Shown here in pieces: positions 19,037 to 19,178 of a DNA stretch of 64,000 bases. This stretch comes from a virus. Each line of letters starts with the position of its first letter. Positions within the stretch are counted from its first letter, which is position 1. The notes beneath the pieces were generated by a model. That model was not told the origin of the DNA. It worked only from the letters and a program-made list of their open reading frames with translations, and did no database searches. Location: IMG/VR virus record IMGVR_UViG_3300033148_006102, positions 62,001 through 126,000 of that record; one strand, given 5' to 3'. Both the position numbers and the translations under genes were made by a program.

Positions 19037-19178
19037 TGGGGCGAATGCGGACGGGATTACATTGATTCATAATCCGTTGGTCGGAGGTTCGAATCCTTCC
19101 CTCGCCACCACTATGGCGAGGTAGCTCAGTCTGGTAGAGCAGCGTATATGTCAAATCTCGTCGATTCTCGTCGCCCCA
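19037..19178 (+). ncRNA. Y-RNA-like RNA A with tRNA-mimic module
   Basis: Six bases after the Ro60 stop. Outer stem TGGGGCGA (19037-19044)/TCGCCCCA (19171-19178), internal loop ATGCG versus GATTCTCG, inner stem GACGGGATT (19050-19058)/AATCTCGTC (19154-19162) extended by ACAT/ATGT with a CA bulge. The distal part holds tRNA parts in permuted order: T arm GGAGG/CCTTC with TTCGAAT (19083-19099), acceptor CCTCGCC/GGCGAGG (19100-19106/19115-19121) closed by ACCACTAT, which includes the ACCA tail, then TA and D arm GCTC/GAGC with AGTCTGGTA (19124-19140). This is the layout described for YrlA-type bacterial Y RNAs, which mimic tRNA. Confidence 0.75.

What the first reader, a model, noticed from the sequence alone, without database searches (positions are those of the whole stretch)
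19083..19141. A tRNA-mimic module in permuted order, with encoded ACCA, inside the first Y-like RNA
Directly seen: T arm (19083-19099), acceptor 3' strand, ACCACTAT, acceptor 5' strand, TA, and D arm with GG in the loop (19124-19140). The order is T arm, acceptor, D arm, with the Ro-binding stem where an anticodon arm would be. This is the layout described for bacterial YrlA RNAs. The acceptor pairs at all seven positions, and the ACCA tail is kept, so tRNA enzymes (RNase P, TruB, CCA-adding enzyme) may act on it.
Basis: partly seen in the sequence, partly recalled or inferred. Interest (0 to 1): 0.85.

Follow-up and report, generated by a model that had tools for sequence, protein, structure and literature searches.

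The report
Phage Y RNA carrying permuted tRNA mimic
A large phage carries a gene for a Ro60-like protein followed by three small Y RNAs, and the first one contains a scrambled-order copy of a tRNA, down to the CCA end; this belongs to a known RNA family (YrlA), though its tRNA disguise, and that of many bacterial relatives, may be more complete than Rfam's model of the family shows.

Summary
T arm (19083-19099), acceptor 3' strand, ACCA, CTAT, acceptor 5' strand (7/7 pairs), TA and D arm (19124-19140) lie in permuted tRNA order inside a Y-like RNA that starts 5 bases after a phage Ro60/Rsr gene. No such module appeared in 60 shuffles of the window. Rfam's YrlA model matches the whole RNA (64.9 bits, E 1.5e-14; curated cut-off 69). 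It is a phage YrlA RNA: a new member of a known kind.

The encoded ACCA is not unique. 25 of 57 unique proteobacterial modules carry NCCA directly after the 7-bp acceptor, one with the same 8-base loop (ACCACTAT); the enterobacterial YrlA and most phage ones have a short or different loop.

One unexpected result: in proteobacterial YrlAs the bases before the T arm form a hairpin in exact anticodon-arm register (7-base loop, U33 and A37 favoured, variable triplet). It covaries and collapses when slid by one base. With two pairs from the post-D strand it completes a five-pair anticodon stem in 32 of 49, with the Y stem inserted between 28 and 29. The window's RNA shows a weaker version (4/5 pairs, TTCATAA).

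Processing by RNase P or other tRNA enzymes is untested here.

The parts
17436..19031 (+). phage Ro60/Rsr protein, 531 aa, with vWA metal-site motif DVSGS
   Evidence: Pfam vWA_Ro60 E 1.4e-14 and TROVE E 2.6e-8; NCBIfam RNA-bind_Rsr E 1.4e-21, below its cut-off; 45% identical to Myxococcus phage Mx1 TROVE protein
19037..19178 (+). Y1, a YrlA RNA: outer Y helix 19037-19044 with 19171-19178, inner helix 19050-19058 with 19154-19162
   Evidence: Rfam RF02553 at 19038-19180, 64.9 bits, E 1.5e-14; fold, z -3.47
19062..19082 (+). anticodon-arm-like segment: loop TTCATAA (19066-19072, CAT at 34-36), 39-43 = TCCGT, variable loop TGGTC; 4/5 stem pairs with 19142-19143 and 19063-19065
   Evidence: register comparison; costs 2.5 kcal/mol against the core fold without it
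19083..19099 (+). T arm, 5 bp, loop TTCGAAT
19100..19106 (+). acceptor 3' strand CCTCGCC
19107..19110 (+). encoded ACCA (discriminator plus CCA)
   Evidence: same position in 25 of 57 unique proteobacterial modules
19111..19114 (+). linker CTAT between ACCA and acceptor 5' strand, placed like a pre-tRNA leader
   Evidence: same loop in L257
19115..19121 (+). acceptor 5' strand GGCGAGG
19124..19140 (+). D arm GCTC(AGTCTGGTA)GAGC with GG in the loop
19196..19274 (+). Y2, second Y-like RNA without tRNA module
   Evidence: shared GAATGC..TACATT 5' motif; fold, z -2.51
19282..19357 (+). Y3, third Y-like RNA without tRNA module
   Evidence: shared 5' motif; fold, z -4.86

Best explanation
The module is the effector end of a phage-encoded YrlA RNA, the first of three Y RNAs downstream of the phage's own Rsr/Ro60 gene, probably co-transcribed with it. 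The outer two-helix Y stem is the Rsr-binding end. The inner module folds like a tRNA in permuted order (T arm, closed acceptor, D arm), giving the tRNA elbow and a 7-bp acceptor whose loop carries ACCA. Shown here: the sequence, the Rfam match, the pairing, the neighbouring Rsr gene, and conservation of layout and acceptor pairing in relatives. Inferred: Rsr binding to this RNA; tethering of a host partner such as PNPase (established for Deinococcus Y RNA) by the tRNA-like end; modification by TruB and DusA (reported for bacterial YrlA). The encoded ACCA most likely records descent from a tRNA-like sequence and is kept in one lineage class, where it may serve tRNA-binding proteins. The phage would use this particle during infection to steer RNA decay or handle tRNAs, in keeping with its 28 tRNA genes and tmRNA.
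For: Full-length RF02553 match; Rsr/Ro60 gene ending 5 bases upstream; same gene order, Rsr then YrlA-type RNAs, in the enterobacterial rsr-yrl-rtcB fragments L182/L183; three tandem Y RNAs with a shared 5' motif; no chance occurrence in shuffles; acceptor pairing kept with full sequence turnover in bacterial and phage relatives; TruB/DusA modification and PNPase tethering described in PMC8394870; 28 encoded tRNAs and a tmRNA.
Against: The Rfam score is 4 bits below the curated cut-off, because of a 15-base insertion and a longer acceptor loop; several YrlAs from bacterial genomes also score below it. The phage record holds no PNPase-type or RtcB protein, so any partner must come from the host. 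No expression, binding or modification data exist for this virus.
Confidence: 0.9

Rival explanations
1. The YrlA tRNA mimic is complete: it includes a split anticodon arm with variable triplets, and the RNA works as a decoy or bait for enzymes that recognise whole tRNAs, such as anticodon nucleases or modification enzymes; the phage copy shows a Met-type CAU loop.
For: In proteobacterial YrlAs a hairpin sits exactly at tRNA positions 29-41 with a 7-base loop (T33 37/45, A37 36/45). Pairs 27-43 to 31-39 form in 50, 46, 35, 42 and 41 of 51, against shuffled maxima of 36, 35, 28, 31 and 34. Sliding by one base drops pairing from 79%/95% to 21-31%/39-50%. 32 of 49 form all five pairs. A decoy role for YrlA against a tRNA nuclease has been suggested (PMC7790460).
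Against: The arm is not the minimum-energy fold in 9 of the 10 bacterial examples. In the window one of five pairs is a mismatch and the arm costs 2.5 kcal/mol. Phage YrlAs show it weakly (5 of 25 with three or more local pairs at this register). No function was tested.
Confidence: 0.2
2. Two tandem tRNA genes decayed, leaving the 3' half of a tRNA-Met next to the 5' half of another tRNA; the permuted look is an accident of adjacency.
For: Tandem tRNAs give lookalikes in the window, and the best plasmid match is a Vibrio tRNA-Met/tRNA-Phe pair. The anticodon-like TTCATAA is in register for Met.
Against: The two halves share one perfect 7-bp acceptor; the outer halves are absent and replaced by two Y helices that pair with each other; the same arrangement recurs in unrelated phages and bacteria.
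Confidence: 0.03
3. A true permuted tRNA gene: RNase P and ligation at the Y stem would release a working tRNA with anticodon CAU.
For: The order matches permuted tRNA genes, ACCA and a leader-like CTAT are encoded, and joining at 28|29 gives a near-complete cloverleaf. RtcB lies beside YrlA in enterobacterial fragments L182/L183.
Against: ARAGORN accepts most shuffled versions too, so its call is uninformative. This phage has no RtcB and three ordinary tRNA-Met genes. Many relatives cap the acceptor with a 1-4 base loop and no CCA.
Confidence: 0.02

Closest known systems
YrlA RNA (Rfam RF02553), including the enterobacterial rsr-yrl-rtcB operon RNA
   Same: Y helices, conserved GAATGC..TAC motif, permuted T arm, acceptor and D arm, Rsr gene upstream
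   Different: The phage acceptor loop is 8 bases with ACCA, against 1 base in the enterobacterial YrlA; 15 extra bases before the T arm
Alphaproteobacterial YrlAs (Novosphingobium, Qipengyuania, Rhodobacteraceae; L257)
   Same: 7-bp acceptor with encoded NCCA; L257 has the identical loop ACCACTAT; anticodon-like loop before the T arm in many
   Different: Acceptor sequences differ; the anticodon-like stem is usually complete there, 4/5 in the phage
Permuted-module RNAs of other phages (Klebsiella KP13-26, Myxococcus Mx1, Microbacterium Big4, Streptomyces and Mycobacterium phages)
   Same: Permuted module with acceptor of 6-7 pairs, several in records that also encode Ro60
   Different: Most lack ACCA; Mx1 has loop TAGC and its RNA lies about 12 kb from its Ro60 gene
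Permuted tRNA genes of algae and archaea; permuted tmRNA (RF04321)
   Same: 3' half encoded before 5' half
   Different: Those release a tRNA or tmRNA; permuted tmRNA scores only 17.8 bits against a cut-off of 47 here

Membership tests
YrlA (RF02553) | covariance-model match over the full length | tested here: inconclusive
   64.9 bits, E 1.5e-14, positions 1-114 of 114, but curated cut-off 69; many bacterial matches from the same searches also score 60-69
YrlA (RF02553) | Rsr/Ro60 gene next to it | tested here: met
YrlA (RF02553) | Y helices formed by the RNA's ends, with GAATGC..TAC motif | tested here: met
YrlA (RF02553) | tRNA-like T arm, acceptor and D arm in permuted order | tested here: met
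YrlA (RF02553) | binds Rsr; carries pseudouridine and dihydrouridine | not testable with these tools
   needs experiment; reported for bacterial YrlA in PMC8394870
permuted tRNA gene | complete anticodon arm when halves are joined | tested here: inconclusive
   4/5 pairs and a TTCATAA loop, but the ARAGORN call does not discriminate from shuffles
permuted tRNA gene | mature tRNA product | not testable with these tools
   needs RNA from infected cells
permuted tmRNA (RF04321) | model match over cut-off | tested here: not met
   17.8 bits against 47; an ordinary tmRNA lies at 19363-19759
tandem tRNA remnant | ordinary tRNA genes on both sides sharing the two halves | tested here: not met
   no ARAGORN call at this place

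The most novel reading that the evidence does not exclude
YrlA RNAs of proteobacteria and of this phage mimic whole tRNAs, with encoded CCA and a split anticodon arm whose triplet varies between close relatives, and serve as exchangeable baits for enzymes that attack or modify particular tRNAs; the Ro60 stem is inserted between tRNA positions 28 and 29.
Probability: 0.15. Interest if true: 0.8.

Novelty: new member of a known kind. Interest (0 to 1): 0.47.

Why it matters
It adds a phage from a large, tRNA-rich group to those that carry their own Ro60 and Y RNAs. The comparison shows two things Rfam's consensus structure does not: many YrlAs encode CCA in the acceptor loop, and many keep an anticodon-like loop in exact register. 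Both make it testable whether YrlA is recognised as a whole tRNA in cells, and by which enzymes.

Tried and rejected
Nearest relatives by DNA: a Y1 pattern found no copy in viral contigs, and blastn found only Klebsiella phage KP13-26. Four viral contigs with 44-45% identical Ro60 had no module by my scan. A first viral pattern had wrong spacing and found nothing; the corrected one mostly returned tandem tRNAs. ARAGORN on joined halves was dropped as evidence because 41-43 of 52 shuffled controls were also called. Origin from one of the phage's own tRNAs is not supported: best identity 70%, like unrelated tRNAs among themselves. The primary YrlA papers (Chen 2014, Wang 2018) and two reviews are not in the library, so whether they mention encoded CCA or an anticodon-like loop is unknown to me; from memory, the structure paper says YrlA lacks a free CCA end and has a kink in the stem matching the anticodon stem. 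A first guess that the deaminase at 10298-10783 is TadA was dropped after NCBIfam placed it nearer dCTP/dCMP-type deaminases.

Full report
What is there. The window is 62001-126000 of a 195,108-base IMG/VR virus record. All 28 ARAGORN tRNA genes lie in the window and none in the rest of the record; all 28 encode CCA. A tmRNA lies at 19363-19759. A 531-aa protein at 17436-19031 is a Ro60/Rsr homologue with a DVSGS metal-site motif. Its closest phage relative is the TROVE protein of Myxococcus phage Mx1, 45% identical over the full length; enterobacterial Rsr fragments are 46-48% identical. Mycobacterium and Streptomyces phage Ro proteins are 21-24% identical.

The RNA. Five bases after the stop codon an RNA begins whose ends pair (19037-19044 with 19171-19178), followed by an inner helix (19050-19058 with 19154-19162). 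Rfam's YrlA model matches end to end with 64.9 bits, E 1.5e-14, 4 bits under the curated cut-off. The model aligns with an insertion of 15 bases before the T arm and a longer acceptor loop; these probably explain the lower score. Two further RNAs, 19196-19274 and 19282-19357, share the 5' motif (GAATGC, then TACATT) and fold into Y-like stems without a tRNA module.

The module. The acceptor pairs at 7 of 7 positions. At the strict setting there is one such module in the window and none in 60 dinucleotide shuffles. The real background is tandem tRNA genes, which put a 3' half before a 5' half; in this window their acceptors pair at 6/7 or fewer.

Relatives. A pattern that does not ask for acceptor pairing found 12 bacterial YrlAs; read by eye and by script, their acceptors pair although their sequences differ. 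Rfam-guided searches of roughly 1300 genomes, followed by a structure parser, gave 57 unique proteobacterial modules in all, a few of which are poorly parsed. In 25 of 57 the loop begins NCCA directly after the 7-bp acceptor; by chance about 1 is expected (57/64), though close relatives are not independent. One, L257, has the same loop as the phage, ACCACTAT. Others close the acceptor with short loops such as GAAA, GCAA, GTGA or 1-2 bases. The enterobacterial YrlA (L182, L183, next to rtcB) has a 1-base loop. Among phage modules the loop is ACCA or GCCA in a minority: L130 twice, L046, Big4. Klebsiella phage KP13-26 has ACAACTAC at the same place.

An unexpected feature. Counting upstream from the T arm in tRNA numbering, 45 bacterial YrlAs show a local hairpin only at the anticodon-arm register: 3' strand starting at position 39 with a 7-base loop, mean stem 2.58 bp against 0.2-1.1 elsewhere, T at 33 in 37 and A at 37 in 36. 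Pairs 29-41, 30-40 and 31-39 are local; pairs 27-43 and 28-42 join the strand after the D arm. Over 51 sequences these five pairs form in 35, 42, 41, 50 and 46 cases, each above the maximum of 500 shuffles, with several pair types each; in a set thinned to 25 the local pairs still exceed the shuffled mean but not the maximum. Sliding the partner by one base drops local pairing from 79% to 21-31% and distal pairing from 95% to 39-50%. 32 of 49 have all five pairs. The triplet at 34-36 varies even among near-identical sequences (GTC, TCC, TGC in L135-L142). So the Y stem is inserted between positions 28 and 29 of an otherwise complete permuted cloverleaf. Rfam's consensus has no such hairpin, and the local pairs were not a selection criterion. 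Against it, thermodynamic folding rarely prefers the arm. In the window the loop is TTCATAA and 4 of 5 pairs form, with a T-C mismatch at 29-41; taken alone this would be weak evidence.

Mechanism. The best-supported reading is a phage Rsr-YrlA particle: Y stem bound by Rsr, tRNA-like end binding a host partner. PNPase tethering and TruB/DusA modification are described for bacterial Y RNAs (PMC8394870). The phage record holds no RtcB and no RNase PH-domain protein, so partners would be the host's. Whether RNase P opens the ACCACTAT loop is open; [quoted passage not shown] PMC7790460 suggests that YrlA's tRNA-like domain may inhibit a tRNA nuclease by competition; an anticodon-like loop would fit that idea.

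Verdict. The finding is real and correctly read as a YrlA module. It is a new member of a known family, with an encoded CCA that turns out to be common in one part of the family. The split anticodon arm in bacterial YrlAs is the part most worth a follow-up.

Noticed in passing
bacterial loci L132-L143, L146-L258: Proteobacterial YrlAs carry a hairpin in exact anticodon-arm register with a variable triplet, and 25 of 57 encode NCCA in the acceptor loop.
   Followed up: yes
L130 (4765, 4904, 5297, 8229): A 262-kb virus contig carries at least four permuted tRNA-like modules with Y-type motifs and different acceptor stems, two with encoded CCA.
   Followed up: partly
10298-10783: Deaminase-fold protein (PF00383; best NCBIfam matches are a dCTP deaminase and ComEB-type family, all below cut-off) overlapping the start of tRNA-Arg(acg).
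   Followed up: partly
12544-14082: 512-aa protein with a vWA domain and a zinc ribbon, about 3.4 kb upstream of the Ro60 gene.
   Followed up: no
L182, L183 (OR845705.1, OR851267.1): Two short GenBank records labelled as Escherichia and Salmonella phage hold the enterobacterial rsr-yrl-rtcB operon and are probably bacterial DNA.
   Followed up: partly
L001, about 2770-3400: Klebsiella phage KP13-26 has unannotated permuted modules with Y-like flanks among its tRNA genes; the loop ACAACTAC looks like an eroded ACCACTAT.
   Followed up: partly
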